DNA from: Rheinheimera sp. SA_1
GTDB lineage: Bacteria > Pseudomonadota > Gammaproteobacteria > Enterobacterales > Alteromonadaceae
NCBI RefSeq assembly: GCF_001669775.1
Contig: NZ_LXWK01000016.1
Span: forward strand, 558,001-622,000
Length of the DNA stretch: 64,000 nucleotides
Direction: 5' to 3'
In this document: piece by piece, positions 1 to 64,000 of the stretch
How positions within the stretch are numbered: the stretch's first letter is position 1
How the letters are laid out: each line of letters opens with the position of its first letter
Position numbers and translations under genes: made by a program
Notes under the pieces: generated by a model
The model's input: only the letters and a program-made list of their open reading frames with translations
Told to the model about the DNA's origin: nothing
Databases searched by the model: none

Positions 1-234
1 ATTGCCGTTGTTACTTACTTCTGGTTTAACGATCTGATCATCGGCACTGTGATTGGCCTGGCCATTGTGATTAATATTCTGGTGGCGGCAGCTTCCGGGG
101 TGGTTATCCCGGTGCTGCTGGAAAAAGTCAAAATTGACCCGGCATTATCCGGCTCGGTTATTCTCACCACCATCACCGATGTGATTGGTTTTTTTGTGTT
201 TCTCGGTCTAGGCTCCTTGTTACTGTTGCCTTAA
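1..234 (+). CDS. mgtE: Magnesium transporter MgtE, C-terminal part (5' end outside window)
   Basis: Frame 1 is open from the first base to the TAA at 232-234, giving 77 residues of a membrane protein. It carries the end of the MgtE transmembrane domain: a segment with many Ala/Gly and Val residues, then the family signature in which a Pro-Ala-Leu stretch leads into T-T-I-T-D-V-I-G-F-F. In MgtE this last helix helps form the Mg2+ pore, and the Asp of the TD motif is a known ion ligand. The regulatory N and CBS domains lie outside the window, so nothing can be said about gating. No terminator is obvious in the 126 bases before rimK. Confidence 0.85.
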   Translation: MAVVTYFWFNDLIIGTVIGLAIVINILVAAASGVVIPVLLEKVKIDPALSGSVILTTITDVIGFFVFLGLGSLLLLP

Positions 235-360
235 ATATTCCAAAGTTTGACGCTGACAATAGATTTTTAAAACAAAGCCAAATCACCAAGTCGTAACTAT
301 TTAAACTCATTATTATTTTTTGCAGTGTGGACAATCACCACAGCTGTAGCCGGAGTCTGC

Positions 361-1266
361 ATGAAAATAGCTTTGTTATCCCGAAATGCCGAATTGTACT
401 CGACCAAGCGACTGGTCGAAGCCGCCGAAGCCCGCGGCCACCAGATTGAAGTGATTGATCCGATTTTGTGTTACATGAACATCAATCACAATGCGTTATC
501 TATCCACTACAAAGGCGAAGAACTGTCGGCTTTTGATGCGATTATCCCGCGGATCGGCGCTTCAATTACCTTTTACGGTAGCGCCGTTTTACGCCAGTTC
601 GAAATGATGAATGTGTATTGCCTGAATAACGCCGCCGCTATCGGCCGGGCGCGCGATAAACTCAATTCACTGCAACTATTAGCACGCGACGGTATTGGCT
701 TGCCGATCACCGGTTTTGCTGACAAACCCGGTGATATTCCTGATCTGATTGAAATGGTCGGTGGCGCGCCGCTGGTGATCAAATTGCTGGAAGGCACCCA
801 GGGTATCGGCGTGGTGCTGGCCGAAACCCGCACCGCCGCCGAGAGTGTGATTGAAGCCTTCATGGGCCTGAACGCCAATATTCTGGTGCAGGAATATATC
901 CGCGAAGCCAAAGGCGCCGATATCCGCTGTTTTGTGGTTGGCAATAAAGTGGTGGCCGCGATGAAACGCCAAGCTAAAGAAGGTGAATTTCGCTCTAATT
1001 TGCATCGCGGCGGCACCGCCAGTAAAGTCCGTTTAAGTAAAGCCGAACGGCAAACCGCATTAAAAGCGGCGCGCTGCATGGGTTTAAATGTGGCGGGTGT
1101 TGATATCTTGCGCTCCAATCAGGGGCCGGTGGTGATGGAAGTGAATAGCTCACCTGGCCTCGAAGGCATTGAAGCTGCAAGCGAAATTGATGTTGCTGAC
1201 ACAATAGTGCAGTATCTGGAACAACAAGTAAGCCGCCACCAAAGCAAACAACGGAGATCGTCTTGA
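361..1266 (+). CDS. rimK: Ribosomal protein S6--L-glutamate ligase RimK (ATP-grasp)
   Basis: The 301-aa product has the usual RimK length and aligns along its whole length with the E. coli family as I recall it. It starts MKIALLSRN and contains CYMNIN and [11 protein letters not shown] in the N-terminal domain, ARDKL at the ATP-grasp entry, [13 protein letters not shown] in the nucleotide loop, FRSNLHRGG, and the Mg-binding [12 protein letters not shown] near the end. RimK adds glutamates post-translationally to the C-terminus of ribosomal protein S6. I chose the ATG at 361 because GGAG sits 7 bases upstream; an in-frame GTG at 325 would only add residues foreign to the family. The stop overlaps the next start by one base (TGATG), so the two genes are almost certainly co-translated. 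Confidence 0.95.
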
Positions 1267-2369
1267 TGAGTGAAGTGCCGGAACCGGATAATGCCCCAGC
1301 CGTCAGCAACCGCCCGCCGCCCGCTGTCGCCGAAGATTTTGAGTTTGGCAACAGCACCATCACCCCAGGTAGCCGCGTGGTGGTGGATATCCCCTTTGGT
1401 AAACTTTACACTCACACCGAGCTTAATATCGGCGCCCATGTGCTGCATGGCAAAAGACCTGGCCCGGTACTGCTGATTACCGCGGCTTTGCATGGTGATG
1501 AAATTAATGGCGTGGAAATTTGCCGTCGCTTGCTGAAACTTCCAAAAATAAATAGTTTACGCGGCACTTTAATCGTGGTTCCGATCGTCAATACCTATGG
1601 TTTTGTACAACAATCCCGTTATTTACCGGACCGCCGAGATTTAAACCGCAGTTTCCCTGGCAGTGAAAAAGGCTCATTAGGCAGTCGGATGGCCTGGCAG
1701 TTCACCGACCGTATTCTAAAGAAATGCACCCATGTCATCGACTTACATACTGGCGCTATTCACCGTAGTAACCTGCCGCAAGTCCGCGCTACTTCCAGAG
1801 ATAAAGTGTCGCTGAAGATGGCCGAAAGTTTTAATGCGCCGATTATTATCAAAGCTGCTAGTCGCGACGGCACCATGCGCGGCACCGCCAATAATCTGGG
1901 TATTCCGATTATTTTGTATGAAGCCGGTGAAGCGCTGCGTTTTGATGAGCAGTCGATCAAAATTGGTGTGCGCGGTATCGTCAACGTGATGCACAGTCTC
2001 GGCATGCTACGGTCGGTGCGAAAGGTCGAGAAAACCCAGTCGTTATTTTCGAAAAAAAGTAGCTGGGTCCGCGCCGAGCATGATGGTATCGCCCGCTATT
2101 ATTATGGTTTAGGCCAAAAAGTTGAAGTGGGTGATGTGCTGGCGCATATCTACTCGCCCTACTCCGATTTTGAAGTCGCTGTGGTAGCAACTTTCAGCGG
2201 TATTATCATTGGCCGCAATAACTTACCGCTGATCAACGAAGGCGAAGCGCTGTTCCATATTGCTGAAGTCAGTGAACTGGATGAAGCGGAAAAAACCATT
2301 GATGCGATCAGCGACGAAGTCGATAGTGCGATGCCGGCGGTAATGGGCGGAGAATTTGGGTTGGTCTGA
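1266..2369 (+). CDS. Succinylglutamate desuccinylase/aspartoacylase (AstE/AspA) family protein
   Basis: A 367-aa zinc-dependent hydrolase of the AstE/AspA branch of the M14-like fold. Visible zinc motifs are HGDE at about residue 76 and a later IDLHTG His at about 160. RRDLNRSFPG is the substrate-binding Arg-Asn-Arg motif of the family, and YEAGE carries the likely catalytic Glu. A short Pro-rich N-terminus of about 25 residues precedes the fold, and the C-terminal third looks like the beta-rich lid domain. Members remove acyl groups from amino acids (N-acetylaspartate, succinylglutamate), but the substrate of this RimK-linked subgroup cannot be read from sequence. Start is the ATG overlapping the rimK stop. 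The gene ends just before a palindromic repeat. Confidence 0.85.
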   Translation: MSEVPEPDNAPAVSNRPPPAVAEDFEFGNSTITPGSRVVVDIPFGKLYTHTELNIGAHVLHGKRPGPVLLITAALHGDEINGVEICRRLLKLPKINSLRGTLIVVPIVNTYGFVQQSRYLPDRRDLNRSFPGSEKGSLGSRMAWQFTDRILKKCTHVIDLHTGAIHRSNLPQVRATSRDKVSLKMAESFNAPIIIKAASRDGTMRGTANNLGIPIILYEAGEALRFDEQSIKIGVRGIVNVMHSLGMLRSVRKVEKTQSLFSKKSSWVRAEHDGIARYYYGLGQKVEVGDVLAHIYSPYSDFEVAVVATFSGIIIGRNNLPLINEGEALFHIAEVSELDEAEKTIDAISDEVDSAMPAVMGGEFGLV

Positions 2370-2371
2370 GC

Positions 2372-2516
2372 TATACCCGTCATCCTTGAAGATTCGGGGT
2401 TGTTGGCCGCCTGCACTCACCCCAGTCACATAGAACAGCTATGCTCCTGGGTCGGGCTGGCGTTCCAGATTCGTTTAGTTGCCGCCTACCCGAATCTTCA
2501 ATGATTTTGGGTATAT
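2372..2516 (+). repeat. Dispersed palindromic element, copy 1 (145 bp)
   Basis: The element begins TATACCCGTCATCCTTGAAG and ends with the near-complement CTTCAATGATTTTGGGTATA, so it has imperfect terminal inverted repeats of about 28 bp. The centre holds CACATAG...CTATG inside CCCAG...CTGGG, an inner hairpin. Related copies lie at 22458-22646 (reverse orientation), 36133-36256 and 53868-54010. It has no ORF of its own. It sits in the gap between convergent genes (aspartoacylase-like and yggN-like), where a folded transcript could also protect or terminate the mRNA. Confidence 0.9.
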
Positions 2517-2542
2517 ACCCGTCATCCTTGAAGATTCGGGGT
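2513..2542 (+). repeat. Orphan left terminus of the palindromic element, abutting copy 1
   Basis: Immediately after copy 1, and sharing its terminal TATA, the left-end sequence starts again (TATACCCGTCATCCTTGAAG followed by ATTCGGGG) and then stops without a centre or right end. It is a second, truncated copy in tandem. Confidence 0.85.
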
Positions 2543-2560
2543 AAAAATGAGCTCAGCGGC

Positions 2561-3316
2561 CTACTTGGCAATCACCACATCGTACTGCAGCAGTTGCGGC
2601 ACCCGTTGTTGCAGCTGACTTTCGATATGATCAAGTTCCAGCAAGCGGGTACAAAATAACGCCGATTGTGCTTCAAGCTCATCGGCTTTGGCATCGAGCC
2701 CCAAATTTATTTTATCAATCAGCTGCTCGACACTCTGCCAGTCCTGGCTTTCACTACGTTCGAAATTATCGTCGGTCTGCCGCAGTGCGTCACGTAGCGC
2801 GCCCCACACCGCACCCACGGTATTTTTAGCCAGCTGCGTCAGATTTTCTTTCAGCTCGCCATGCAAAAATGCATCCATTTCATTCAGGCTTTGTGGTGCC
2901 AGATAAAAATGCTCGCCACTTCGGACAAACCGCGACATCAACTGATAGGTGGTTTCCTGCACCAGCGCTTTCCATTCTTCCTGTTGGGTCGGATTACCGA
3001 CGCCAATCAACATACTTTCAATTGCTGATAAACCGAGCTCGACGCTGTCAACAGCGATGCCAACCACTTGCGGCACAAATTTGCGCATGCCCTGGCTGTA
3101 TTGGGCAACAACTTCAGTATCTGCTTCGGATAAGGTAATCCACTGTCCCTGAATAAATAACTGGCGGTCATAGTTAATCTGAAATTGGGTGCGATCAGCG
3201 GTCATGACCCGGATTTGATCCGGCGAAATCAGAATGCCGTGCCGGAACGCCATCTGGCATTCATTGGCAAAAAGGTGGAAACTCAGCAGGCCAAACAATA
3301 GCAATAAAACTCGCAA
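2561..3316 (-). CDS. YggN-like DUF2884 family periplasmic protein
   Basis: The 251-aa product resembles the DUF2884 (E. coli YggN) family: after the signal peptide comes a Cys, then a segment with GILISPDQIRVM, LFIQGQWI, and a long helical region containing VPQVVGIAVDSVELG. The family has no established function; the protein is predicted to be periplasmic. A frame open to 3367 exists, but I place the start at the TTG at 3316. It has AGGAG six bases upstream and gives a normal signal peptide (R-V-L-L-L-L-F-G-L-L, cleavage near F-A-N-E-C), whereas the longer form would bury it behind 17 unlikely residues. No operon partner is evident: the gene downstream is convergent. Confidence 0.75.
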   Translation of the reverse strand: MRVLLLLFGLLSFHLFANECQMAFRHGILISPDQIRVMTADRTQFQINYDRQLFIQGQWITLSEADTEVVAQYSQGMRKFVPQVVGIAVDSVELGLSAIESMLIGVGNPTQQEEWKALVQETTYQLMSRFVRSGEHFYLAPQSLNEMDAFLHGELKENLTQLAKNTVGAVWGALRDALRQTDDNFERSESQDWQSVEQLIDKINLGLDAKADELEAQSALFCTRLLELDHIESQLQQRVPQLLQYDVVIAK

Positions 3317-3466
3317 CTTTTTCTCCTGACAACCAGCCCGAAAGTTCGTGATGTGAAATGGCAGCATAACTTATTAAAACGGCCAGGGCAGCTGGCATTA
3401 TCGCAGCCAGCGCACAATTTATCGGATAACAGAGTATCTAAGTTTGGTCAAACCAGTTTTTGGTAG

Positions 3467-3549
3467 GTCGGATAAACGCAAAGCGTGCCGTCAGACAGGG
3501 GCTCGGCCTGCATTTGGTATCGCACGCAGTGGCGCTGAGCTTATCCGTC
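3467..3549. repeat. REP/BIME-like inverted repeat
   Basis: The intergenic gap 3317-3579 contains an imperfect inverted repeat. The left arm starts GTCGGATAA and runs to GCGTGC; the right arm starts GCACGC and ends CTTATCCGTC. The arms pair over much of about 22 bp around a GC-rich centre. The GGATAA ends and GC-rich arms recall enterobacterial REP elements. It lies between two genes on the minus strand (after the FapA-like gene, before the yggN-like gene). The rest of this gap holds nothing else I recognise. Confidence 0.45.
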
Positions 3550-3579
3550 TTTGTCGCAAAACAGGGGGTCGAAATAAAC

Positions 3580-5256
3580 TCAGTGGATTAACGGATCAAT
3601 TTTCAAAGCCGCTTCGATAATTTTCACCTGACTTGGTCCGTACTCACGTTTGACCGGCAGCTTTTCACTCCCCACGTGAACTTCAACCCCACCAAACATT
3701 TGCTGTTTGACGATGACTGCAGTTTCAATCATCAACGCCACACGCTGTGCTTCCAGCCGTTTGATATCTTCAATCATTGCTAAAGCGACGGTTTTTTGCG
3801 CTTCAAATTCTTCCACAAAAGCATTCATATGCTCGGTGGTCGCGTCCGATTTCTCGAGTTTTTTCATCTGCTCAATACTGGACTTAATTTGTTCCATTTC
3901 CACTTTGACCGCGGCCACATTTTGCCGCAGCGCCTGCTGTTTTTCGGCAACCGGGTCAATGCGCCGATTGATATTCAGCTGCAGCGAGCTTTCGGATGGT
4001 GAGCCAAGTACCCCACATTTAATGCCCAAATCGAGATAAAAATGCCCACCTACCACTTTACCGGTCAGCTTATCTTCGGGTCCGGCCACCACCATTCTGG
4101 CGGATACATCACAATGGTTAATTTGCTTCACCGCGTGGAAATCACCTTCGCATTCAATCTTGACGTACTGCGCTAAAGTACAACGGATGTCACCTTTTGC
4201 TTTGACCACCGTACTGTACTGTTCTTCATCAGTTCCGACATTTACCTGATGACCGATAATAGAACCGCCAATCGAAATATCACCACCTGATTCGACCAAA
4301 TCGCCTTCAACCGCACCTTTGATAAAGACATTACCGCCTGCAATCACTTTCATGCCCTGGGTGACATCGCCGTTGACGATCACCGAACCACGGAACTGAA
4401 TATGACCGGTGGCTAAATCGACTTTTTTCACCGCGTACACTTCATCAACAGTAGCGCCGGCATCCAAAATACGGGGCATTCCATCACGCGCCGCTATCAG
4501 TAAATCCGCATCAGTAGGGCTGACTTCAACGCCTTCACCGTTATTCCATTCGATAGGTGTACCAGGCGGTGCCAATGTTACTTCACTGCGGACATTAATG
4601 CCGTCAACGCCTTTGGTTGGCGGAAGGCGACGCACTATACCTTGCCCCAGCTGTACCGCAGGGATCACGCCAAAGTCGCGTAAATCAGCACGACTGTTGC
4701 TAATCATCACGGGTTTATTCACCCGCACCGACATCCCGGCAACTAAGGCTTCAAACCGCGCATTCAGTCCGGGTTGCATCACGCGGCCGACGGCAATCAC
4801 CTGCGTTGTCACGACTCCGGGTTCAGCCCGGCTCGCCGTCGCGACTAAATGGACAATTTGTTCTTTTTGAAAGCCAAAGCTGATGCCGTATTCCTGAGCC
4901 CCTTTGACTAAATCATTGGCCGACACCGGCGCGCCGCCCCAGGCTGCAACAATAGTGGCCGTAGCAGTCATCGCATCGGGTGCGATATCAAATTTAACTT
5001 CAGCATTTTTACGCACGGCGATTTTGCGCTGGGCGCGGTAGCCATCTGGGATTTTTTTCAGTTTAAGTTCGGATTGCAGTGCCTGATAATCGGCAAGTAA
5101 ATTAGTGAGTTGATCGTTCACCACAAAGCAGCGGCCAAAACCAGCTTCGGCCATGCCTTCGCGCACCAGCGCTGGGGTTAAAGGCAACAGTGTCACCATC
5201 ACGTCGATAATGATCGTGTCTTGATTACGACTAAATTGCATTGAAATAGAGTTCAC
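3580..5256 (-). CDS. FapA (DUF342) family protein
   Basis: A 558-aa cytoplasmic protein of the FapA/DUF342 family. The N-terminal domain (roughly residues 1-190) is mixed alpha/beta. A Gly-rich block follows (PTKGVDGINV, then PPGTPIEWNNGEGV). The centre (about 270-400) is a repetitive polymer-like beta-helix with repeats such as GSVIVNGDV, GGNVFIKGAVEGD and GGDISIGGSIIG. The end is a coiled coil (VAAVKVEMEQIKSSIEQMKK) and a short tail. In Vibrio, FapA is linked to flagellar and glucose signalling, but many genomes carry several paralogues, so I do not assign that role. The start is a GTG with GGA seven bases upstream; an ATG at 5241 is possible. It appears monocistronic. Confidence 0.8.
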   Translation of the reverse strand: MNSISMQFSRNQDTIIIDVMVTLLPLTPALVREGMAEAGFGRCFVVNDQLTNLLADYQALQSELKLKKIPDGYRAQRKIAVRKNAEVKFDIAPDAMTATATIVAAWGGAPVSANDLVKGAQEYGISFGFQKEQIVHLVATASRAEPGVVTTQVIAVGRVMQPGLNARFEALVAGMSVRVNKPVMISNSRADLRDFGVIPAVQLGQGIVRRLPPTKGVDGINVRSEVTLAPPGTPIEWNNGEGVEVSPTDADLLIAARDGMPRILDAGATVDEVYAVKKVDLATGHIQFRGSVIVNGDVTQGMKVIAGGNVFIKGAVEGDLVESGGDISIGGSIIGHQVNVGTDEEQYSTVVKAKGDIRCTLAQYVKIECEGDFHAVKQINHCDVSARMVVAGPEDKLTGKVVGGHFYLDLGIKCGVLGSPSESSLQLNINRRIDPVAEKQQALRQNVAAVKVEMEQIKSSIEQMKKLEKSDATTEHMNAFVEEFEAQKTVALAMIEDIKRLEAQRVALMIETAVIVKQQMFGGVEVHVGSEKLPVKREYGPSQVKIIEAALKIDPLIH

Positions 5257-5427
5257 AGCGGGATCACAACTATAACCATAATTACTGGCTACTGAAGCAA
5301 ATTTTCACTGTAAACGCAAGTGATTGCGTAAAATCAGTAACCTTTCTGCAAATTTTTGCGTTAAATTATTTGCGCAGTTTGTCAAATGCTTCAGCGCTGG
5401 TATTTATCTGAAGCGGGTTCACGACCA

Positions 5428-5450: not shown

Positions 5451-5508
5451 TCTTTATAGAGCAGCCGCAATCTTTGCGCCTGTTAACCATCGGAACAATA
5501 GCCAATCT

Positions 5509-5844: not shown

Positions 5845-5947
5845 AATTGTTTTCACCATCGTTTGGCTTGTGTATCACTGCATTATGATACAGGCAGAAA
5901 AATGTGTCCAGAGCCTGAAACGGCTGTTTAGCAACGGTTTTCCGGCA

Positions 5948-19527: not shown

Positions 19528-21381
19528 CTAGTAGGACAGTACTTGAACCGATAACCCAAACTCAACACCAGCGGTGCGATAACCCAGGTTGGTTTGATAT
19601 TCTTTATCGAACAGGTTATCCACTTTTGCCCGCAGGGTAATATTCGGCTGCCATTGGTAGGCCAGGCCTAAGTTCCAAATAAGGTAGCTGCCTAATTCCG
19701 GTTGTAATTTACCATCCCAGGTTTTGCCAGAGAACGAGCGGCTCTGATACAAAGCATGGCTGCTGAACGTCCAGTCTTGCCATTGTTTGCTGCTGTTCCA
19801 GCTTACTTTATGCGCCGGACGTTTCACCAGTTTTAAGCCAGTTTTTTCATCTTTGCCGTTGAGATAACCGTAGCTAAAGTTTTGACTGGTACCCAATAAA
19901 TCAAAACCAGCAGTGACTTCCCCACCTTCAACGCTCGCCAACAGCACATTGCTAGCCGTTTTGCCGCCGATAATCAGATTGGTTAAATCACGGTCAAACA
20001 ACACCACATCTAACTGTAGCTTCGAACCGTTATAAGCAAGGCCTACTTCACGTGAAGTTGATTCTTCCGGCTTTAATAATGAGTTACCAAAGTCTGGCCA
20101 ATATAAATCGTTAAAGGTCGGCACTTTAAAGGCGGTACCCTGGCTTAAACGACCGGTCAACTGTTCGGTAAAGCGATAACCGCCACTCAGCTGATAAGTA
20201 TTTTTGCTGCCGTAACCTGTTACGTTATCGTGGCGACCGGTCGCGTCAAATAACCATTGTTCGCCCTGAAAACCGATCCCGCTGAACACACTTTGGTTGG
20301 TTCTTTTATCCTGCGAATATTTCGGCGCGTTTTTATTAACAAGCTCCTGATACCAGTTAGTGCCGCCAATCAAATTCCATTGCTGGTTCAAGGTCACTGT
20401 TGCCTGATAACTGGCTTCTTCGCGTTTGGTTTCAAATAACGAATCTGCCACTTTCAAACCATAGCTGGTATCACGGTCAATACTGTGTGAAAGCTTCAGC
20501 TGATGGTTGACCACGTCTTGCTGCAGGCTCCAGTCCAGCTGATGTGAATCTTGCTGGGTATTGGCTTTATCACCACCAAAGCTGGTATCAAACTCGTAAT
20601 AGCCGTCATTGAGCTGCGACTGCCACTTGAATAAGCCAATGGCAGACTGATAATCGGCACCTGCTTTGAGATAACTTTGCTGATAACCATCATCATCCGG
20701 ATCGGCATTTAATTTGGCAGAAAAGCCTTCTGCGCGGGAAGTACCGACAGTGCCAAACAGGTTTAGATTATCCTGCACCTTGGTGCTGCCGGATAAACTG
20801 GCTTCGGCCTGACCAAAGCTGCCGATATTGGCATTAAATTCAACCTTTTGGCCCTGACGGGTGGTAATGGCAATCACACCACCTAAAGCATCTGAACCAT
20901 ACCAGGCCGCTTTCGGGCCACGGATCACTTCGATTTTTTCAACCAGTTCCAGCGGTACCATCGCCAATGCCTGATAGCCCAGCGTTGCCGAACCAATCCG
21001 CACGCCATCGAGTAGCACTAAGGTATGGCCGCTGCTACCACCACGAATAAACACGCTGCTGTTCTGACCACGACCACCGTCACGAGCGACACTGACACCA
21101 GCCACTTGCTGTAACAACGCCGGTAAATCCCGCACCTGGCGGCGGTCAATGTCGACACGATCAAGCACGGTGACGCTGGTCAGCGATGCTGATACCGGCC
21201 GTGCCTGACGGTTGGCGTAGACGCTGATATGCTCAATTGCTGCCTGGTCAGTTGTTGCTGATGTATTTTTTGCTGATGAATGATCGGCTGGTAAATTATT
21301 GGCTGGTAAAGAAACCGCAGCTGTTGCGGCAAAAGCAAAGGTACTGAACACAGCAGTGCTCAGTATTGAGAACTTCAACAT
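19528..21381 (-). CDS. btuB: TonB-dependent vitamin B12 receptor BtuB
   Basis: A 617-aa outer-membrane receptor. After the signal peptide (MLKFSILSTAVFSTFAFA) and a polar spacer comes a TonB box (EHISVYA). The plug domain contains LLQQVAGVSV, SVFIRGGSSGHTLVLLDGVRI, and VIRGPKAAWYGSDALGGVI. The rest is a 22-strand barrel rich in aromatic-terminated strands, ending in the barrel-assembly signal LSVQVLSY. Size and plug sequence fit BtuB, and the cobalamin riboswitch upstream confirms it. ATG 21381 has GGAG six bases upstream; a longer start at 21405 is unlikely. The transporter genes it serves lie 4 kb away on the other strand. Confidence 0.95.
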   Translation of the reverse strand: MLKFSILSTAVFSTFAFAATAAVSLPANNLPADHSSAKNTSATTDQAAIEHISVYANRQARPVSASLTSVTVLDRVDIDRRQVRDLPALLQQVAGVSVARDGGRGQNSSVFIRGGSSGHTLVLLDGVRIGSATLGYQALAMVPLELVEKIEVIRGPKAAWYGSDALGGVIAITTRQGQKVEFNANIGSFGQAEASLSGSTKVQDNLNLFGTVGTSRAEGFSAKLNADPDDDGYQQSYLKAGADYQSAIGLFKWQSQLNDGYYEFDTSFGGDKANTQQDSHQLDWSLQQDVVNHQLKLSHSIDRDTSYGLKVADSLFETKREEASYQATVTLNQQWNLIGGTNWYQELVNKNAPKYSQDKRTNQSVFSGIGFQGEQWLFDATGRHDNVTGYGSKNTYQLSGGYRFTEQLTGRLSQGTAFKVPTFNDLYWPDFGNSLLKPEESTSREVGLAYNGSKLQLDVVLFDRDLTNLIIGGKTASNVLLASVEGGEVTAGFDLLGTSQNFSYGYLNGKDEKTGLKLVKRPAHKVSWNSSKQWQDWTFSSHALYQSRSFSGKTWDGKLQPELGSYLIWNLGLAYQWQPNITLRAKVDNLFDKEYQTNLGYRTAGVEFGLSVQVLSY

Positions 21382-21424
21382 AATAACTCCATGGTACACG
21401 CCCACCGCGTGCAGTTGAGTGAAT

Positions 21425-21640
21425 GAACTTCTCAGGCCGGTCTCCGGGCTGCACTGTCAAACTTTTCAGTTTGACCAAGATCGCACCTTCCCATCGACTG
21501 ACAGTGGTTGAGCGATCTCCATCATGAAGTTCATGATGAGTGTTACCGTTGCGGGGGCAGCTCTGGCTTCGAACCAGATTCCCGTTTCACTGTTGTTTGC
21601 GATTGGCAGGATGACCAATGGCTAAAACAGCACCTGAAAA
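21425..21640 (-). promoter_or_regulatory. Cobalamin riboswitch controlling btuB
   Basis: The minus-strand leader contains the B12 box core (GCTGCCCCCGCAACGGTAA, near 21545-21565), preceded by ACGGGAATCTGGTTCGAAG, and the conserved 3' element CCCGGAGACCGGCCTGAGAA near 21430-21450. The upstream part carries CAGGTGCTG near its 5' end. This is the AdoCbl-responsive aptamer: bound cobalamin represses BtuB, here probably by hiding the ribosome site, because no T-run hairpin follows. Exact ends are estimates. Confidence 0.93.
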
Positions 21641-21651
21641 AATGCGGCCTC

Positions 21652-22424: not shown

Positions 22425-22690
22425 TTCAGAGCTACCACAGACAATAGGTTTGCGATATATACCCAAAATCATTGAAGATTCGGAAAGGCCACGGTGGAAC
22501 CGCGGCAACTGAACGAATCTGGAACGCCAGTCCGACCCGGAGCATAGTAGTCCTATGTGACTGGCCGCGCTGGCGTCCCAGTCGGGCTGACGCCTCAGTG
22601 AGTGAAGGCGGCCAACAACCCCGAATCTTCAAGGATGACGGTTATACAAGCAAACTTATGAAATCGCTGTTGTGGGTGAGTAGCTCTGAA
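22425..22690. repeat. 11-bp inverted repeat flanking palindromic element copy 2
   Basis: TTCAGAGCTAC at 22425-22435 is exactly complementary to GTAGCTCTGAA at 22680-22690. Copy 2 of the dispersed element lies between the arms. Without the insert the arms would form a hairpin about 25-55 bases after the yajQ-type stop codon, in the place of a transcription terminator. Confidence 0.7.
22458..22646 (-). repeat. Dispersed palindromic element, copy 2 (189 bp, reverse orientation)
   Basis: Reading the minus strand it starts TATAACCGTCATCCTTGAAG and ends with CTTCAATGATTTTGGGTATA. It is longer than the others because both arms of an inner stem are present: CTGGGACGCCAG pairs with CTGGCGTTCCAG around the conserved CACATAG...CTATG hairpin. 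It may be the most complete form of the family. Confidence 0.9.
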
Positions 22691-36132: not shown

Positions 36133-36256
36133 TATACCCTTCATCCTTGAAGCTGAAGCTTTGTTGCCTGCTCTCGTTCGCCCAATCACATAGAACAGCT
36201 ATGTTCATGGGTCTCACTCGCTGGTCGCCGCGCTGCATCTTCAAATATTTTGGGTA
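36133..36256 (+). repeat. Dispersed palindromic element, copy 3 (124 bp), inside the riboflavin gene cluster
   Basis: It starts TATACCCTTCATCCTTGAAG, has the conserved centre CACATAGAACAGCTATG with CCCA...TGGG flanks, and ends CATCTTCAAATATTTTGGGTA. It is the most diverged copy: the GATTCGG part of the termini has changed to CTGAAGC on the left and GCTGCAT on the right. The rest of the gap 36107-36344 contains GGCCGC repeats but no gene. Confidence 0.85.
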
Positions 36257-36344
36257 AAAAAAACTGTAACTAAAAAGGCCGCATATGATAGCACAACAAT
36301 AGCCTCATCCGACTAGTGTTTATTCACAATTGCGGCCGCGCCGG

Positions 36345-53867: not shown

Positions 53868-54010
53868 TATACCCGTCATCCTTGAAGATGCGGGGTTGTT
53901 GCCTTCGCTCGCTCGCCCCAGTCACATAGGACAACTATGCTCCTGGGTCGGGCTGGCGTTCCAGTCTCGTTCCTCGTCGCCTACCCAAATCTTCAATGAT
54001 TTTGGGTATA
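53868..54010 (+). repeat. Dispersed palindromic element, copy 4 (143 bp)
   Basis: It begins TATACCCGTCATCCTTGAAG and ends CTTCAATGATTTTGGGTATA. The middle repeats the CACATAG...CTATG hairpin and CTGGGTCGGGCTGGCGTTCC of copy 1. It fills most of the divergent gap between the REC-EAL and histidine-kinase genes (53766-54070). Promoters for both genes must lie in the remaining stretches or in the element itself. Confidence 0.9.
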
Positions 54011-57924: not shown

Positions 57925-58990
57925 CGGCTAATACTCCACGACGGATTTGATCTTCTTCAATCGATTCAAACAACGCTTTAAAATTACCTTCGCCAAAGCC
58001 TTCATTGCCTTTGCGCTGAATAATTTCAAAGAATACCGGACCGATCACTGTTTTGGTGAAAATCTGTAGCAAAATGCCATCTTTTTCCGGTGCGCCGTCA
58101 ATCAGAATGCGTAGTTCACGCAGCATGTCGGTATCTTCGGTATGACCGACGACCCGGCTGTTAACCTTGTTGTAATAAGTATCCGGTGTTGGCATAAATT
58201 CCATACCGCGGGCACGTAATGTACGAACCGTTTCGTAAATGTTTTCCGTGGTTAAAGCGATATGCTGAATGCCTTCGCCTTTGTATTCACGGATGAACTC
58301 TTCAATTTGTGATTTATCATCAGAAGATTCGTTAATCGGAATACGGATTTTGCCACAAGGTGCGGTCATGGCACGCGACACCAGACCCGTCAGTTTGCCT
58401 TCGATATCAAAATAACGGATTTCGCGGAAGTTACCGATTTTCTCGTAAAAACCTGACCAGACATTCATATTGCCGCGACGGACGTTGTGCGTTAAATGGT
58501 CCAATACTTCCAGGCCTACGCCATGCGCAGCCATTTGGGTTTGCCAGTTTTCGTAAAATTTAAAATCTACATCGTACACAGAGCTTTGACCATAACGGTC
58601 TACGAAGTACAGCAGACTGCTGCCAATGCCGTATACCGCAGGGATATTCAGCTCCATTGGGCCAATTTGATTTTTGTATTCTTTAGCGCCGTTTTCGGTA
58701 GCATGTTTTAACGCGGCGGCCGCATCTTTAACCCGGAACGCCATCGCGCAGACGCTTGGGCCGTGAGTGCGTGCAAATTCTTCGGCCTGAGAGTTGGGTT
58801 CGCCATTGACGATAAAATTAACGTCGCCTTGTTTGTATAACCAGGCTTGCTTGGAGCGGTGTTGGGCAACTTCGGTAAAACCAAGAGAGACAAACAACTG
58901 TTTTAACTTGTTGATGCCCTCTGCGTCAGCAGCAGTGTATTCAACAAACTCAAAACCATCGGTTCCTAACGGATTAATAGGATCAAACAT
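57917..58990 (-). CDS. hppD: 4-hydroxyphenylpyruvate dioxygenase HppD
   Basis: A 357-aa VOC-fold enzyme that makes homogentisate. Iron ligands: His in LDHLTHNVRRGNM, His in GIQHIALTTENIY, and Glu in VFFEIIQRKGN. Other family marks are FEFVEYTAAD and VGHTEDTDMLRELRILIDG. ATG with GGAG seven bases upstream. Upstream, within 218 bases of the tyrR gene, there is a TyrR-box-like site and a palindrome. Confidence 0.96.
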   Translation of the reverse strand: MFDPINPLGTDGFEFVEYTAADAEGINKLKQLFVSLGFTEVAQHRSKQAWLYKQGDVNFIVNGEPNSQAEEFARTHGPSVCAMAFRVKDAAAALKHATENGAKEYKNQIGPMELNIPAVYGIGSSLLYFVDRYGQSSVYDVDFKFYENWQTQMAAHGVGLEVLDHLTHNVRRGNMNVWSGFYEKIGNFREIRYFDIEGKLTGLVSRAMTAPCGKIRIPINESSDDKSQIEEFIREYKGEGIQHIALTTENIYETVRTLRARGMEFMPTPDTYYNKVNSRVVGHTEDTDMLRELRILIDGAPEKDGILLQIFTKTVIGPVFFEIIQRKGNEGFGEGNFKALFESIEEDQIRRGVLADA

Positions 58991-59083
58991 CAGCAGACTC
59001 CAAACATAAATAGTTGTTTTGTGACTGATATCTTGAGCTGTTTGGCTAAAAAAGGAAGGGTCGTGGCTAACATGATGCTAACA

Positions 59084-59105
59084 GTTCAAAACTGCCGTTT
59101 TGTAC
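59084..59105. promoter_or_regulatory. Palindromic operator candidate upstream of hppD
   Basis: GTTCAAAAC and GTTTTGTAC flank TGCC: eight of nine positions pair (only T/T is off). It lies about 95-115 bases before the hppD ATG and overlaps the TyrR-like box next to it. The protein that would bind it is unknown. Confidence 0.5.
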
Positions 59106-59118
59106 AATTAACTATACG
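59101..59118. promoter_or_regulatory. TyrR-box-like site upstream of hppD
   Basis: TGTACA-ATTAAC-TATACG agrees with the E. coli TyrR consensus TGTAAA-N6-TTTACA at nine of twelve fixed positions. It lies about 110-128 bases upstream of the hppD ATG. Agreement is moderate. Confidence 0.4.
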
Positions 59119-59144
59119 AAAGATGCTATTTACCTAAAACCTGC

Positions 59145-59178
59145 TAAAAAAGCCCCGGATCGGTAGATCTTAGGGGCT
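59145..59178 (-). terminator. Rho-independent terminator of tyrR
   Basis: On the minus strand AGCCCC pairs with GGGGCT, with GATC and GATC inside the loop able to extend the stem, followed by six T. It lies about 30 bases after the tyrR stop and separates tyrR from hppD. Confidence 0.8.
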
Positions 59179-59208
59179 ATTTAGTACAACTAACCGCACA
59201 AAGCGTAG

Positions 59209-60771
59209 TTAAATTTTTACACTCTTACGATTAATGCCGTATTCACGCAATTTATTGGCGACGGCGGTATGACTAAGCCCAAGTTTTTTCGCCAATTGCC
59301 GCGAGCTTGGATAAGCCGGAAACAGTTTACGCAGCAAATTTGCTTCAAATCTTTTGACCGCTTCATCTAAGGTGCCATCAAAGTCTTTTTCCAGATAACC
59401 AAAATCATTGGTGTAGCTTGGCAGCTGTAGCTGTTCTTTATCGAGTTCATATCCTTCAAGCAAGGTCACAGCTCGGTATAACGCATTTTCCAGCTGCCGG
59501 ACATTGCCAGGCCACGGATATTGCTGCACAAACTGGGCACAGGTTTCGGTCATTCTCGGCGCTTTTCGCCCCAACCTTGCTGAAAACCGGCTGATAAAAT
59601 ATTCGCTAAGCGGCACGATATCCTGCTTACGATCACGCAGCGGCGGCAACGCCAGCGTCAGGACATTAAGCCGGTAGTACAAATCTTCGCGAAACTTACC
59701 TTCCTGCACCAAGCCAGGTAAATCTTTTTGAGTGGTACAAATCACCCGTACATCAACTCGCACTTCATTTTCATCGGCAATACGCCGAAAACTGCCGTCC
59801 TGCAAAAACCTTAGTAATTTTGTTTGCAACTCGCGGGACATCTCTCCCACTTCATCCAAAAACACCGTGCCTTTGTTGGCTTGCTCAAAAATGCCTTTTT
59901 TCCCTTCAACAGTTCCTGGAAAGGCATTTGGGCCGTAGCCAAATAATTCAGATTCAGCGACATTGTCGGGCATCGCGGCAATGTTCACCGCTAAAAATGG
60001 TTTGCCAGCCCGACTACTTCCGCCATGACAAGCCCGCGCCAACAGTTCTTTGCCGGTACCGGTTTCACCCATAATTAAAATAGGCGCGTCCAGCTGCGCC
60101 ATTTTTTTAGCTTCGCGCACCACTTTTCGCATCACATTGCTATTGGCGTGCAGACTGTTGAAACTTTCTTGATCGCCTTTTTTAAACACTACCATCTGCT
60201 CGCCAAGCCGGCTTTCAGATTTTAAGTTGATCACAGCACCTGCCAGAGTTTCATGGCCAGAATCGTCCGGCACCATGACTGGCAACACGTCAGCGATAAA
60301 TCTTTTGCCATGAATTTCAAAACGACGGGTTTGCGCCAGCACGTCATCACTTTCCAGCCAGCGCAGAAAATTAAAACCTTTGACCATATTCGCCAGCGAC
60401 TGGCCAAGAATGTCTTCTGATGCTACCGATAAAGCTTGTAATGCAGCGTCGTTAATAATAGTGACATTGGCTTTGGTATCGATGGCGATCACACCATCCG
60501 GCAGCGTTTTCAGCAGCGTTGACAGCTCGTTGTGTTCACGTTCTGAAGGTAAAAAAGAGGTGGTTCTGACATCGTCAACCCCAGGAATACGGCGGATTTT
60601 CGCCATAAGTTCCTGAAATTTTTCAAAATCAATTCCCGGAAATGCCACATACATCCGACCAAGCAATGGGTCGACTTCAATGCCACGTAAATCAATCTGG
60701 TAGTGCACCAGAATATTCAGAACTTCCTGAGCTATACCAACCCTGTCCTGACAATGGATCTCTAAACGCAT
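59209..60771 (-). CDS. tyrR: Transcriptional regulator TyrR
   Basis: A 520-aa regulator of aromatic amino-acid genes. Order: ACT domain (MRLEIHCQDRVGIAQEVLNIL), PAS domain (about 78-190), AAA+ domain with Walker A GETGTGKELLARACHGGS and Walker B GTVFLDEVGEMS, and C-terminal Fis-type helix-turn-helix (SSRQLAKKLGLSHTAVANKLREYGI). The sigma-54 contact loop GAFTGA is replaced by PNAFPGT, as expected for TyrR, which works with sigma-70. Start: ATG 60771 fits the family best; an ATG at 60807 without a ribosome site is the alternative. Beside it are phhB and hppD, its likely targets. Confidence 0.95.
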   Translation of the reverse strand: MRLEIHCQDRVGIAQEVLNILVHYQIDLRGIEVDPLLGRMYVAFPGIDFEKFQELMAKIRRIPGVDDVRTTSFLPSEREHNELSTLLKTLPDGVIAIDTKANVTIINDAALQALSVASEDILGQSLANMVKGFNFLRWLESDDVLAQTRRFEIHGKRFIADVLPVMVPDDSGHETLAGAVINLKSESRLGEQMVVFKKGDQESFNSLHANSNVMRKVVREAKKMAQLDAPILIMGETGTGKELLARACHGGSSRAGKPFLAVNIAAMPDNVAESELFGYGPNAFPGTVEGKKGIFEQANKGTVFLDEVGEMSRELQTKLLRFLQDGSFRRIADENEVRVDVRVICTTQKDLPGLVQEGKFREDLYYRLNVLTLALPPLRDRKQDIVPLSEYFISRFSARLGRKAPRMTETCAQFVQQYPWPGNVRQLENALYRAVTLLEGYELDKEQLQLPSYTNDFGYLEKDFDGTLDEAVKRFEANLLRKLFPAYPSSRQLAKKLGLSHTAVANKLREYGINRKSVKI

Positions 60772-60954
60772 CGCCTCACGCACCTTTTCCTGATGGGTTT
60801 GAGGCATGATACGGCACTTTTAGCCGTCGATACCAGTGCTTTTTGTAAACTTTTGTGAACAAGTTACCGTTTTGCAATTGAAGCGCTTACAAAATCAGCC
60901 AACGCTACCAGGCAGATTGCCAGCGAACTTGGTGTCGCTTTGAACCTGCAAAAA

Positions 60955-60985
60955 GTAAAAAGGCCGCCGCAGCAGCCTTTTCTAT
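60955..60985 (-). terminator. Rho-independent terminator after phhB
   Basis: On the minus strand AAAAGGCTGC and GCGGCCTTTT form a 10-bp stem with a G-T pair and a TGCG loop, followed by a T-rich tract. It is 25 bases after the phhB stop. The remaining gap to tyrR (60772-60954) holds only its presumed promoter. Confidence 0.85.
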
Positions 60986-61009
60986 TTTAAAGACATTTTT
61001 GCAACCGGC

Positions 61010-61351
61010 TTATTCTGCCAGCAAGGTGTCGGTTTTAGCCGCACAAATAAAATCGTTTTTATGCAGACCTTTAATTGAATGTGACCACCAGGTCACGGTC
61101 AGTTTGCCCCATTCCAGCAGCAATGCCGGATGATGACCTTCTGCTTCAGCCAACTCGGCAACTTTATTATGAAAAGCCCAGGCCAGTTTAAAATTCTTAA
61201 ATTTATAACTGCGTTCCAATTGCAAAATGCCGTCTCGAACCACCGGCGTCCAATCCGGGATCTGACGCATCAGTGTGGGTAATTCTTCATCAGAAACTCT
61301 TGGTGCATCGGCACGGCAGGCTTCACATTTCATTACAGCTAATTCAGTCAT
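61010..61351 (-). CDS. phhB: Pterin-4a-carbinolamine dehydratase PhhB
   Basis: A 113-aa enzyme that recycles the pterin cofactor of phenylalanine hydroxylase. The family core is [55 protein letters not shown], with the catalytic His pair in EGHHP and a third in WWSHS. Two N-terminal Cys (K-C-E-A-C) are an extra. ATG with GAGA before it. It follows phhA by 95 bases and ends in a terminator. Confidence 0.94.
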
Positions 61352-61446
61352 GTTTATTCTCAGTTTCTTAAAATCAGGATTTAACAAGGTTAGGCGGCAA
61401 ACAATTCGGGCATATCCGATTAAACTTCGGCAACTACCCCCATCGG

Positions 61447-62238
61447 CTAACTGGCTTTTTTCTGTTTGGGTGGAAACTTTGGCGCGTGTAAGCCAAGACT
61501 TTTCGCAGTCTGCACTAATGCCATTAAATCCATCTGTGCTATTTCAAACAGATCATGAATTTTTTCAATTTTAAAATAAGCTGGCTGCATAATATCGATG
61601 CGATATGGCGTTCGTAGTACCTCAACAACATCCAGCATATGACGCTCGGGAATGTCTGAATGCATCGCATACTGCGTTTCACCCGGTGAGGATAAAATGC
61701 CACCGCCATAGATCCGTAGACCTTCTGGTGTTTGCATCAGGCCAAATTCAATAGTGAACCAGTACAACCTGGCCAGATATACGCGGTCTTCTTTGCTTGC
61801 GGCTAAACCTAACTTACCGTAAATGTGGGTAAATTCAGCAAAATCAGGGTTGGTGAGCATAGCGCAATGGCCGAAAATTTCGTGGAAAATGTCCGGTTCC
61901 TGCAAATAATCAAATTCTTCTTTGCTGCGGATAAAGGTCGCGACCGGAAATTTTTTATTGGCCAGCAACTCAAAAAAGCGATCGAAGCTGATGAGTGCGG
62001 GAACTTCGGCACATTCCCAACCTGTAGTGGCGCGCAGCACTTTGCTGACTTCTTCCAGTTGCGGAATGCGATCTAAAGGTAATTTTAACTTGTCTAAACC
62101 GGCCATATATTCATCACAGGCTTTGCCGGAAATACAGGACAACTGACGGGCGATTAACTCACTCCAAATGGCATTTTCTTCATCGCTCCATGCGATAAAA
62201 CCATGCTCGTCGGACTGCTTCGAGACATAATTACTCAT
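61447..62238 (-). CDS. phhA: Phenylalanine 4-monooxygenase PhhA
   Basis: A 263-aa bacterial-type (catalytic core only) tetrahydropterin hydroxylase that makes tyrosine from phenylalanine. The iron-binding [10 protein letters not shown] holds His 119 and His 124; the third ligand Glu is in FTIEFGLM. Other marks are [21 protein letters not shown], and a C-terminal [14 protein letters not shown]-type segment ([19 protein letters not shown]). ATG with AGG eight bases upstream. It is preceded by a structured leader and a TyrR-box-like site. Confidence 0.96.
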
Positions 62239-62294
62239 AACGACAACCTGTTGAAAATTGGGTAGCCTGCAGCTCTGACGGCCGGGCTTTGATG

Positions 62295-62322
62295 GCCGGA
62301 TCCTAGATGATTGAGATCCGGC
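62295..62322 (-). promoter_or_regulatory. Hairpin in the phhA leader
   Basis: GCCGGATC at 62295-62302 pairs exactly with GATCCGGC at 62315-62322, leaving a 12-base loop; no T-run follows on the minus strand. A second, shorter GGCC...GGCC pairing lies between this stem and the phhA start. Confidence 0.55.
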
Positions 62323-62358
62323 TGTTAATCACCTACGCCAAATTGGCCTTGGTATAAA

Positions 62359-62376
62359 TGTAATTATTTTTGTACA
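62359..62376. promoter_or_regulatory. TyrR-box-like site upstream of phhA
   Basis: TGTAAT-TATTTT-TGTACA matches TGTAAA-N6-TTTACA at ten of twelve fixed positions. It lies about 120 bases before the phhA start codon and just after the megL stop. It is the best TyrR-like site in the window. Confidence 0.6.
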
Positions 62377-62385
62377 GGCAATCAC

Positions 62386-63639
62386 TTATAGGTTGCAAGC
62401 TAATGTTTCATTTGGTTTTTTTTGCTGTCCTTGCATCTTTACCAATGCCTGAGACAGGTCTGCAATGATGTCGACAACATGTTCAAGACCCACCGAAATT
62501 CGGATCAGCCCATCGCTGATGCCAGCCATCTGCCGCTCTTCTGCCGTGTATGGGCTGTGGGTCATCGACGCCGGATGTTGGATCAGCGATTCAGCATCAC
62601 CTAAGCTCACAGCCAGACTCAGCAGCTGGCATTGATTTATAAAATAACGACCATCTTCCAGGCTACCATTAAGCTCAAATGCTAAGACACCGCCTGCCGC
62701 AGACATTTGTTTACCGATAAATTTGTGTCCAGGATGATCAGGCAAACCGGGGTAAAACACCTTGGCAATGGCCGGATGCTCTGCCAGATATTCCGCGACT
62801 TTTTGCGCATTACTGCAATGACGTTCCATCCGTACCGATAAGGTTTTCAGGCCGCGAATAATCAGCCAGGCATCGTGCGGACTGATGGTTGCGCCCATGT
62901 CTTTGAGTGTGGTGAGTTTGATGGTCTGAATTTTGTCTGCGTCCGACACAATAATGCCTGCGACCACATCGCCATGCCCATTCAAATATTTGGTGGCGCT
63001 GTGAATAACAATATCGATCCCAAAACGAGCGGGTTGCTGCAATAAAGGCGTCAAAAAGGTATTGTCGATCACTGACAATATCTGGTGCTTTTTACAGAAA
63101 TTACCCAGAAATTCTAAATCTAACACCACCAAATTCGGATTAATCGGTGTTTCAGCAAACAACATTTTAGTATTCGGTTTGAGTGCCGCAGCGACCGCCT
63201 GGTGATCGGTCATATCGACAAAGCTGACTTCAATGCCGTAACGGGCAAACTGATGATTAAATAGCGCAAAACTACAGCCATAAATCGCTTTACTGGCAAT
63301 CAGATGGTCACCTTGCTGTAAAAATGCCATGGTTGAAGCAGCGACAGCCCCCATCCCGGTAGCGGTTGCAGCAGCATCGGCCATGCCCTCTAAAGCGGCG
63401 ACTTTCAGCTCCAGTTCGCGGGTGGTTGGGTTGCCTAACCGAGTATAAATATAACCTGGCTGTTCACCGGCAAATCGTGCGGCGCCTTGCTCGGCGCTAT
63501 CAAACACAAAAGTCGAGGTTTGGTATAACGGTGTTGCCAGTGCGCCATACTGGGCATCTTTGACTTTTCCGGCATGAATACACTGGGTTTCGGGGTGTTG
63601 CGGGGCTTGAAACGGCTGTTGATTACTGCGACTGCTCAT
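62386..63639 (-). CDS. megL: Methionine gamma-lyase-like PLP enzyme
   Basis: A 417-aa Cys/Met-metabolism PLP protein. The PLP-Lys motif is IVIHSATKYLNGHGDVVAG. SKAIYGCSFALF carries a Cys at the position that is Cys116 in methionine gamma-lyases, and QHPASMTHSPYTAEERQMAGI fits that branch as I recall it. The reaction would be methionine to methanethiol, 2-oxobutyrate and ammonia. A cystathionine gamma-lyase function cannot be excluded. ATG 63639 has AAGG eleven bases upstream; a GTG at 63672 is the alternative. It stands directly upstream of the phhA regulatory region on the same strand. Confidence 0.82.
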   Translation of the reverse strand: MSSRSNQQPFQAPQHPETQCIHAGKVKDAQYGALATPLYQTSTFVFDSAEQGAARFAGEQPGYIYTRLGNPTTRELELKVAALEGMADAAATATGMGAVAASTMAFLQQGDHLIASKAIYGCSFALFNHQFARYGIEVSFVDMTDHQAVAAALKPNTKMLFAETPINPNLVVLDLEFLGNFCKKHQILSVIDNTFLTPLLQQPARFGIDIVIHSATKYLNGHGDVVAGIIVSDADKIQTIKLTTLKDMGATISPHDAWLIIRGLKTLSVRMERHCSNAQKVAEYLAEHPAIAKVFYPGLPDHPGHKFIGKQMSAAGGVLAFELNGSLEDGRYFINQCQLLSLAVSLGDAESLIQHPASMTHSPYTAEERQMAGISDGLIRISVGLEHVVDIIADLSQALVKMQGQQKKPNETLACNL

Positions 63640-63769
63640 ACTACAAATTGCCTTAGATGATTTTTCAATCACTAAAACAAATTAGTTATATTAAGCACAA
63701 GGCATGCAGACATCTGTCAGTCTATGAGCAAATGACAGATGCAACTTTGACCAGTCGAAAATGTAACAT

Positions 63770-64000
63770 TTAGTTTGCAGTTGCTCCCGGAGCCAGCCGT
63801 TTTACCAGATCAGTCAGCACCTGTTTTACTAAGGATTTATCGCTGATAGCCCCGGGCAGTGGCCGTAATTGCTGCTGTGCAAAACGACCGAGTCTTGCCA
63901 CCATCACGCCCGCCAATACCCCTTGCCCTAACCGCGCCGATAATCGTCCGGACAACTCAGCACCCACTAAATCGGCCCCAACATCGACAGCTATTTCTGC
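63770..64000 (-). CDS. YcjF family membrane protein, C-terminal part (5' end outside window)
   Basis: The minus-strand frame is open from the window edge to the stop at 63770, giving 76 residues: ADLVGAELSGRLSARLGQG, then VLAGVMVARLGRFAQQQLRPLP and a polar tail. The Gly/Ala-rich helix followed by ARLG and R-P-x-P resembles the C-terminus of YcjF (TIGR01620/DUF697), an inner-membrane protein of unknown function often paired with the GTPase YcjX. The partner would be outside this window. Confidence 0.65.
   Translation of the reverse strand, partial: AEIAVDVGADLVGAELSGRLSARLGQGVLAGVMVARLGRFAQQQLRPLPGAISDKSLVKQVLTDLVKRLAPGATAN

What the first reader, a model, noticed from the sequence alone, without database searches (positions are those of the whole stretch)
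1..64000. A family of intergenic palindromic elements (four copies plus a fragment)
Copies at 2372-2516, 22458-22646, 36133-36256 and 53868-54010 share imperfect inverted ends (TATACCC...TTGAAGAT, ending GGGTATA) and a central CACATAG...CTATG hairpin. None encodes a protein, and no transposase is present here. All lie between genes. The TATA at both ends would fit insertion at TA, as in MITEs, but a REP-like role in mRNA ends is equally possible. Size varies by the presence of an inner stem (copy 2).
Basis: seen in the sequence. Interest (0 to 1): 0.75.

Follow-up and report, generated by a model that had tools for sequence, protein, structure and literature searches.

The report
ERIC mobile repeats outside enteric bacteria
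The repeated palindromes are ERIC elements, small mobile DNA repeats known from gut bacteria, here in more than a hundred copies in what is most likely a Rheinheimera genome, and in most copies examined one strand folds better than the other.

Summary
The four copies and the fragment belong to a family with at least 126 full copies in this 5.16 Mb genome, most likely a Rheinheimera. The family is not new: a profile of these copies aligns nearly end to end with the 127-bp repeats of Klebsiella, Salmonella, E. coli, Photorhabdus and Serratia, so they are ERIC/IRU elements. All 22 genomes of the genus match (6-144 matches), as do 30 of 118 in the family. About five sites are empty in this genome or in R. 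riviphila, with TA as target. No autonomous partner was found. New here: the arms covary, and double changes grow with the square of divergence, as two-step compensation predicts. Changes that keep a wobble pair are commoner for the bottom strand than the top (107 to 57), whichever way neighbouring genes run. The bottom strand folds better in 260 of 283 copies and 43 of 44 Photorhabdus copies. Selection therefore seems to act on one folded strand. An antisense bias (62:14 here; 19:3 in Photorhabdus) is not found in other Rheinheimera.

The parts
2372..2515 (+). ERIC copy 1, 144 bp; right inner arm only (CGGGCTGGCGTTCCAG at 2453-2468); 2 bp after the stop of an AstE/AspA-like gene, convergent gene pair
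2514..2542 (+). left-end fragment of a second ERIC in tandem, sharing TA with copy 1
22458..22646 (-). ERIC copy 2, 189 bp, one of the longest forms, with extra inner arms and a right-hand hairpin; the matching site in Rheinheimera riviphila (L156) is empty
36133..36258 (+). ERIC copy 3, 126 bp, no inner arms, most diverged of the four; between a DMRL (lumazine) synthase gene and a DHBP synthase/GTP cyclohydrolase II gene, antisense to both
53868..54010 (+). ERIC copy 4, 143 bp; right inner arm 53949-53964; the orthologous copy in R. riviphila (L074) is 127 bp; between divergent genes
53925..53939 (+). central hairpin CATAG-N5-CTATG of copy 4; the same hairpin is in the other three copies

Best explanation
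These are ERIC (IRU/RU-1) elements: non-autonomous mobile repeats of about 127 bp that sit at TA in intergenic DNA and are moved in trans by an enzyme that is still unknown (inferred). In this genome many copies also carry 16-bp inner arms. The two halves of each element pair into one long hairpin, and changes on one side are compensated on the other in two steps. The pairing that is best kept is that of the bottom strand (the one that reads TATACCCAAAATCATTG...). Selection therefore acts on a folded single strand of fixed polarity. The likeliest such strand is RNA transcribed from it, either as part of an mRNA untranslated region, where in Yersinia ERIC affects mRNA decay, or as an RNA of its own. 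Shown here: family membership, copy number, TA target, compensation, strand polarity. Inferred: that the folded strand is RNA, and what it does.
For: Membership: the profile of 126 own copies hits all 14 enterobacterial or Vibrio loci given (16 hits, E 1.2e-30 to 1.7e-10, database size set to 10 Mb); of the 8 alignments printed 7 span at least positions 5-126 of 128. blastn with copy 4 finds partial matches in 4176 of 5426 E. coli genomes, none over 80% of the query. Mobility: about 5 empty sites among 61 flank-matched cases; three tandem pairs of full copies share TA, one shares TATA; 6 to 144 matches within one genus. Pairing: 22-sequence alignment, 53 both-side changed cells against 14.1 shuffled and 5-13 when slid; nearest-copy contrasts, both-side changes 8, 111, 219 against 2.1, 24.2, 55.5 expected, 71-75% of them Watson-Crick to Watson-Crick, against 0-10 such in slid controls. 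Two-step kinetics: both-side Watson-Crick changes per cell divided by d squared stay 2.1-3.7 over d 0.02-0.22, while divided by d they rise from 0.065 to 0.469; the two lowest bins hold only 1 and 10 such changes. Strand: private one-side changes that wobble in the bottom strand 107, in the top strand 57, p 1.2e-4; 16 positions against 5 of 23, Wilcoxon p 0.007. The bottom strand is more stable in 260 of 283 copies, group means -5.3 to -14.2 kcal/mol, against -0.5 to -3.1 in dinucleotide shuffles, 4 per copy. Photorhabdus: 43 of 44 copies, mean -15.0 against -4.3 in mononucleotide shuffles; wobble cells 115 bottom, 5 top, mostly shared ancestry. Rfam V_AS5 matches a Vibrio and a Klebsiella ERIC far better on that strand (66.4 against 17.0 bits, 54.5 against 21.5), all below its gathering score.
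Against: The wobble asymmetry does not depend on the direction of neighbouring genes (private bottom:top 40:22 opposite, 17:9 same), so readthrough from the host gene alone does not explain it. The antisense bias is not general: own genome 62:14 and Photorhabdus 19:3, but R. riviphila 17:11, R. tangshanensis 9:9, other Rheinheimera 6:15. Copies are not independent, so p-values are optimistic. In the own genome alone the cells off Watson-Crick are 75 bottom-wobble, 43 top-wobble and 165 other mismatches, which is no strong wobble enrichment. Copy 3 has the better z-score on the top strand. No transcript data were available. That the enterobacterial loci used are ERICs is my recall of the ERIC sequence; no feature is annotated under those matches; their 127-bp length and abundance in Photorhabdus fit what papers say.
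Confidence: 0.7

Rival explanations
1. The elements move as a folded single strand (single-stranded DNA or an RNA intermediate) of fixed polarity, and that is why the bottom strand keeps its pairing; they are not plain double-strand DNA MITEs.
For: Strand polarity has the same sign in every group and does not depend on neighbouring genes; DNA folding parameters give the same sign; no IS630-type partner with ERIC ends was found.
Against: The TA target looks like that of IS630-type elements; HUH, RAYT and reverse-transcriptase partners were not looked for; an RNA role explains the polarity too.
Confidence: 0.18
2. Covariation of the arms is only palindrome correction (template switching or gene conversion between the arms), without selection.
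For: Compensated pairs are nearly all Watson-Crick and wobble pairs are rare in the 22-sequence alignment.
Against: A one-step process would scale with d, but double changes scale with d squared; correction would not prefer wobbles of one strand. Orthologue pairs have 51 one-sided and 7 two-sided changes.
Confidence: 0.07
3. A MITE family driven by a resident IS630/Tc1-type transposon with the same ends.
For: TA target and terminal inverted repeats; precedent of RUP and IS630-Spn1 (PMC2229807, passages). Of the high-copy genomes G002, G003 and G006 do hold an IS630-type match.
Against: The own genome shows one IS630-type gene, interrupted; five high-copy genomes (G001, G004, G008, G014, G020) have none, while low-copy G007 and G009 have an open one. 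The IS630 loci, about 1.5 kb on each side, hold no ERIC-like end (best 5 mismatches of 20).
Confidence: 0.1
4. REP/BIME-like extragenic palindromes moved by a RAYT transposase.
For: Intergenic, palindromic, many copies; one-strand polarity would suit a single-strand mover.
Against: Length, ends and sequence are those of ERIC; TA target and tandem TA sharing. RAYT genes were not searched for.
Confidence: 0.04

Closest known systems
ERIC / IRU / RU-1 (enterobacterial repetitive intergenic consensus)
   Same: 127-bp unit, ends TATACCC...GGGTATA, central CCCCAGTCAC...CTCCTGGGG hairpin, TA at the termini, intergenic, collinear alignment over nearly the full length. TA termini and TA duplication are already in print for ERIC (PMC2759123, passages). 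Longer E. coli variants are recalled, not seen.
   Different: Host outside the Enterobacteriaceae and Vibrionaceae named in the review; 16-bp inner-arm ladder of about 127/143/159/175/189 bp; up to 144 matches per Rheinheimera genome
Rfam V_AS5 (RF02818) and, weakly, Ysr49 (RF02766)
   Same: V_AS5 aligns over its whole length with a Vibrio ERIC (E 1.2e-14) and a Klebsiella ERIC (1.6e-11) on the bottom strand; Ysr49 spans the Klebsiella ERIC at E 0.0058; V_AS5 hits copy 4 at 24.3 bits
   Different: All hits lie below the gathering scores; the families are annotated as antisense or small RNAs, not as mobile repeats. A CssrA hit (E 0.24) is at chance level.
RUP of Streptococcus pneumoniae (107 bp, IS630-Spn1)
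   Same: TA-ended intergenic MITE (PMC2229807, passages)
   Different: No sequence relation was tested; no transposase has been identified for ERIC
REP/BIME
   Same: Intergenic palindromes in many copies
   Different: 20-40 bp units (start of the abstract of PMC3733652 in a search listing); no ERIC core

Membership tests
ERIC/IRU | Full-length sequence similarity to enterobacterial ERIC | tested here: met
   Klebsiella aerogenes, Salmonella and Xenorhabdus 1-128 of 128, Serratia 2-128, Photorhabdus 2-127, E. coli 5-126 and 2-127, Vibrio 2-114 only. That these loci are ERICs is recalled; they are unannotated.
ERIC/IRU | Unit length near 127 bp | tested here: met
   56 of 126 full copies are 127 or 128 bp; by a rough motif test 60 of 126 carry an arm or extra hairpin
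ERIC/IRU | Intergenic location | tested here: met
   1 of 126 wholly inside a called ORF, 18 overlap a called gene by 15 bp or more; gene calls are my own
ERIC/IRU | TA termini and TA target duplication | tested here: met
   tandem copies share TA (one pair TATA); about 5 empty sites are compatible with TA. A TA carried by the element cannot be told from a duplicated one.
ERIC/IRU | Effect on mRNA decay, orientation dependent (Yersinia) | not testable with these tools
   known here from PMC2229807 section 10 and passages of PMC10969869; no RNA data
MITE of an IS630-type transposon | Autonomous transposon with the same ends in the same or a related genome | tested here: not met
   IS630 loci of 8 of 22 genomes lack ERIC ends; none in the fetched regions, which are about an eighth of the genome. 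Not a whole-genome search for long elements.
REP/BIME with RAYT | RAYT gene and REP tags | not tested
   no RAYT search was made

The most novel reading that the evidence does not exclude
ERIC elements in all host groups examined are maintained as a folded single strand of one polarity, and this constraint belongs to the element's own life cycle (spread as single-stranded DNA or RNA, or an element-borne RNA product) rather than to the host mRNA into which it happens to be inserted. This would explain why no double-strand transposase with ERIC ends has been found.
Probability: 0.2. Interest if true: 0.8.

Novelty: new member of a known kind. Interest (0 to 1): 0.43.

Why it matters
How ERIC moves and what it does remain open: PMC2229807 (passages) says movement by transposases is hypothesised without experimental support. 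A high-copy ERIC population in a genus whose species hold 6 to 144 matches, with sites that differ between close species, is a system in which mobility could be caught. The strand-specific pairing constraint is a direct, testable clue to which strand and which molecule matter. At least one Rfam RNA family, V_AS5, appears to overlap ERICs, which matters for RNA annotation.

Tried and rejected
A 4.28-kb stretch between an ERIC left end and a right end (L167) looked like a candidate autonomous element; its ORFs read like ordinary chromosomal genes (judged by eye from the translations, no family search), and the right end belongs to its own 65-bp mini-copy. Lone ends: 42 in the fetched regions. 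Five pairings at 0.5-4.5 kb (two of them one place), each using the end of another copy; genes between two of these pairs gave no transposase by Pfam (one of the four had no family), and one large gene in a third (L204) was not searched. IS630 partner: not supported. RNAalifold on the gapped 119-copy alignment gave no pairs, so a nearly ungapped 22-row alignment was used. That readthrough transcription selects the orientation was weakened, as the bias is absent in other Rheinheimera. Replication direction was only looked at by eye from strand runs along contigs. The pair counts printed are out of register by one base and are not used; one search repeats them in register for Photorhabdus.

So the groups overlap. 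The 8:1 of R. riviphila was a small sample; with all its 52 distinct copies it is 17:11, p 0.35.

Rows dropped: 19 of 61 cases have a gap under 40. I count 5 as empty sites by eye (L156/window, L075/L186, L130/L181, L231/L149, window 22458/L156; flanks diverged in at least two), 3 as deletion or rearrangement (L199, L267, L273), 11 as tandem arrays or unclear; 1 of 21 orthologue pairs skipped for misalignment; some pairs share a copy; 3 of the 7 double changes come from one pair (L112/L253), which may be a replaced copy; 29 of 155 places are not full copies. totals include copies at locus edges.
Full report
WHAT IS THERE. The window is G000:C16:558001-622000 of a 5,163,701-base genome in 22 contigs. 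The four copies are real and far above chance. A sequence model from the four copies gives 146 matches in the genome, some of them reverse-strand echoes, with only 150 of 1122 candidates scored. I took 122 stretches around copies and lone ends (with the window 123 sequences and 708,822 bases) and found 155 places, 126 of them full copies with both ends.

WHAT IT IS. The resemblance to ERIC was first recognised from memory and then tested. A profile of the 126 own copies hits all 14 enterobacterial or Vibrio loci given, and of the 8 alignments printed 7 span at least positions 5-126 of 128; Vibrio reaches 2-114. Four of these loci came from blastn, ten from the pattern. A 22-sequence alignment needs almost no gaps. 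No feature is annotated under the matches, so calling them ERIC rests on recall of the sequence. It fits what papers say: 127 bp, enterobacteria (PMC2229807 section 10), and rich in Photorhabdus (PMC3091717 passages), where all 150 scored candidates match. A review says ERIC is found in Enterobacteriaceae and Vibrionaceae (PMC10969869, passages). It cites a paper by Zo (2011) on Gammaproteobacteria that I saw only as a reference. A library search for Rheinheimera with the full name of ERIC gave 0 papers, and in a wider one for Alteromonadales or Shewanella only that review, of the 12 of 342 papers listed, held ERIC terms. Whether ERIC in this group is in print elsewhere I cannot say.

DISTRIBUTION. 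22 of 22 genomes of the genus match model R2, with 6 to 144 matches, 150 candidates scored per genome. In the family 30 of 118 genomes and 19 of 52 genera match; four of the 30 are labelled as the own genus. Filters were stricter and only 29 candidates were scored per genome, so counts are floors.

ANATOMY. Main class 127-128 bp (56 of 126); others about 143, 157-160, 171-176 and 187-189 bp. The steps are 16-bp inner arms on the left, on the right or both, and a right-hand hairpin. By a rough motif test 66 copies have none of these, 29 both arms, 12 the right arm only, 3 the left only, and 16 the extra hairpin in some combination. Copy 4 has the right arm; its orthologue in R. riviphila is 127 bp, so an arm was gained or lost in place. 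From recall, palindrome-induced deletion was described in enterobacterial repeats (Sharp and Leach 1996, not seen).

MOBILITY. Three tandem pairs of full copies share TA, one shares TATA. Of 61 flank-matched cases between loci 39 are filled, 3 intermediate and 19 short; I accept 5 of the 19 as empty sites, all compatible with TA at the target. Copy 2 of the window is absent at its site in R. riviphila; conversely R. riviphila has a copy (L156:5994-6121) where the window has none. Flanks show no strong target preference beyond A+T next to the ends (69 copies with well-kept ends). No long element with ERIC ends was found in the fetched regions. IS630-type genes match in 8 of 22 genomes of the genus, without clear relation to copy number and without ERIC ends.

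PAIRING. In 126 own copies two-sided Watson-Crick changes exceed the maximum of 500 shuffles at paired positions 2, 4, 5, 6, 19, 23, 24, 25 and 27, among others. In the 22-sequence alignment 90.8% of cells pair; 53 cells have both sides changed against 14.1 shuffled and 5-13 in slid controls. Between orthologues, 20 of 21 pairs used, there are 51 one-sided and 7 two-sided changes in 460 cells; all 7 go from Watson-Crick to Watson-Crick, with 2.3 two-sided changes of any kind expected. Among 283 distinct copies two-sided Watson-Crick changes grow with the square of divergence. That speaks for two-step compensation and against one-step palindrome correction. Pairs were drawn disjointly within a bin, but copies recur between bins.

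STRAND POLARITY. One-sided changes can wobble in RNA of the top strand (G-T on the top strand) or of the bottom strand (A-C on the top strand). Private ones number 57 and 107 (p 1.2e-4; positions 5 against 16, Wilcoxon p 0.007). Single steps away from a paired neighbour are 54 and 122, with 234 other mismatches, where loop substitution rates, a rough yardstick, would give 444, 220 and 933. The asymmetry is the same whichever way the neighbouring genes run (bottom:top 40:22 and 17:9, Fisher p 1.0). It has the same sign in each group: own 47:30, R. riviphila 12:4, R. tangshanensis 16:7, other Rheinheimera 20:11, unnamed MAGs 7:2, non-Rheinheimera 5:3. Folding energies agree: the bottom strand is more stable in 104 of 126 own copies, 52 of 52 of R. 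riviphila, 34 of 34 of R. tangshanensis, 53 of 54 of other Rheinheimera, 8 of 8 from unnamed MAGs and 9 of 9 from other named genera, 43 of 44 in a Photorhabdus genome, and 4 of 4 blastn-found E. coli, Klebsiella and Salmonella copies, folded with one extra base. Dinucleotide shuffles explain only part of it. Rfam V_AS5 matches ERICs far better on that strand; Ysr49 does so weakly, and a CssrA hit is at chance level.

ORIENTATION. Between genes that run the same way, own copies lie antisense 62 of 76 times (p 2.3e-8; my own hexamer-based gene calls; 63 of 76 on a recall of genes). Photorhabdus agrees, 19:3 (p 8.6e-4). Other Rheinheimera do not: R. riviphila 17:11, R. tangshanensis 9:9, others 6:15. 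Smaller or overlapping samples gave 8:1 (R. riviphila), 11:6 and 9:10 (G004 and G020) and 21:19 (L061-L166 pooled). So the bias is strong in this genome but not a property of the genus, and it is unexplained.

MECHANISM. Shown: an ERIC family, TA target, insertions that differ between close species, compensation, one-strand polarity. From papers: in Yersinia ERIC is co-transcribed and upstream transcripts are less stable, with an RNase E site proposed and an orientation-dependent effect (PMC2229807 section 10; De Gregorio 2005 itself is not held). Inferred: the selected molecule is a bottom-strand RNA. Not excluded: a single-stranded DNA or RNA stage of the mobile cycle, which would fit the independence from neighbouring genes better.

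VERDICT. The finding is a known family in a less usual host, with one general property, strand-specific pairing, that I did not find stated in the listings of my searches or in the passages and section read.

Noticed in passing
window 21418-21646 (-): Cobalamin riboswitch (RF00174, 84.8 bits) just upstream of a 625-aa ORF on the - strand at 19528-21405.
   Followed up: no
L137:2384-2508, L290:1505-1628: Rfam V_AS5 (Vibrio antisense RNA) aligns over its whole length with ERIC elements, below its gathering score; Ysr49 does so weakly on L290. These families may be ERIC-derived.
   Followed up: partly
G008:C90:92386-93017: Head-to-tail array of five ERIC copies at a period of about 126 bp in another genome of the genus.
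   Followed up: no
G067, G069 (other genera of the family): 28 and 29 matches of 29 scored candidates, so large ERIC populations are likely there too.
   Followed up: no
window 36133-36258: Copy 3 separates two riboflavin-pathway genes (DMRL synthase and DHBP synthase/GTP cyclohydrolase II) that run the same way.
   Followed up: no
L167:6473-6537: Mini-ERIC of 65 bp, internally deleted but with both ends; another of about 70 bp lies at G000:C22:73131-73202.
   Followed up: partly
L162: A contig titled Chryseobacterium sp. 18061 holds the ERIC core pattern, unexpected for that phylum; a mislabelled or contaminating contig is the likeliest cause.
   Followed up: no
own genome against R. riviphila: The antisense orientation bias is strong in the own genome (62:14) and not significant in R. 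riviphila (17:11) although many sites are shared.
   Followed up: partly
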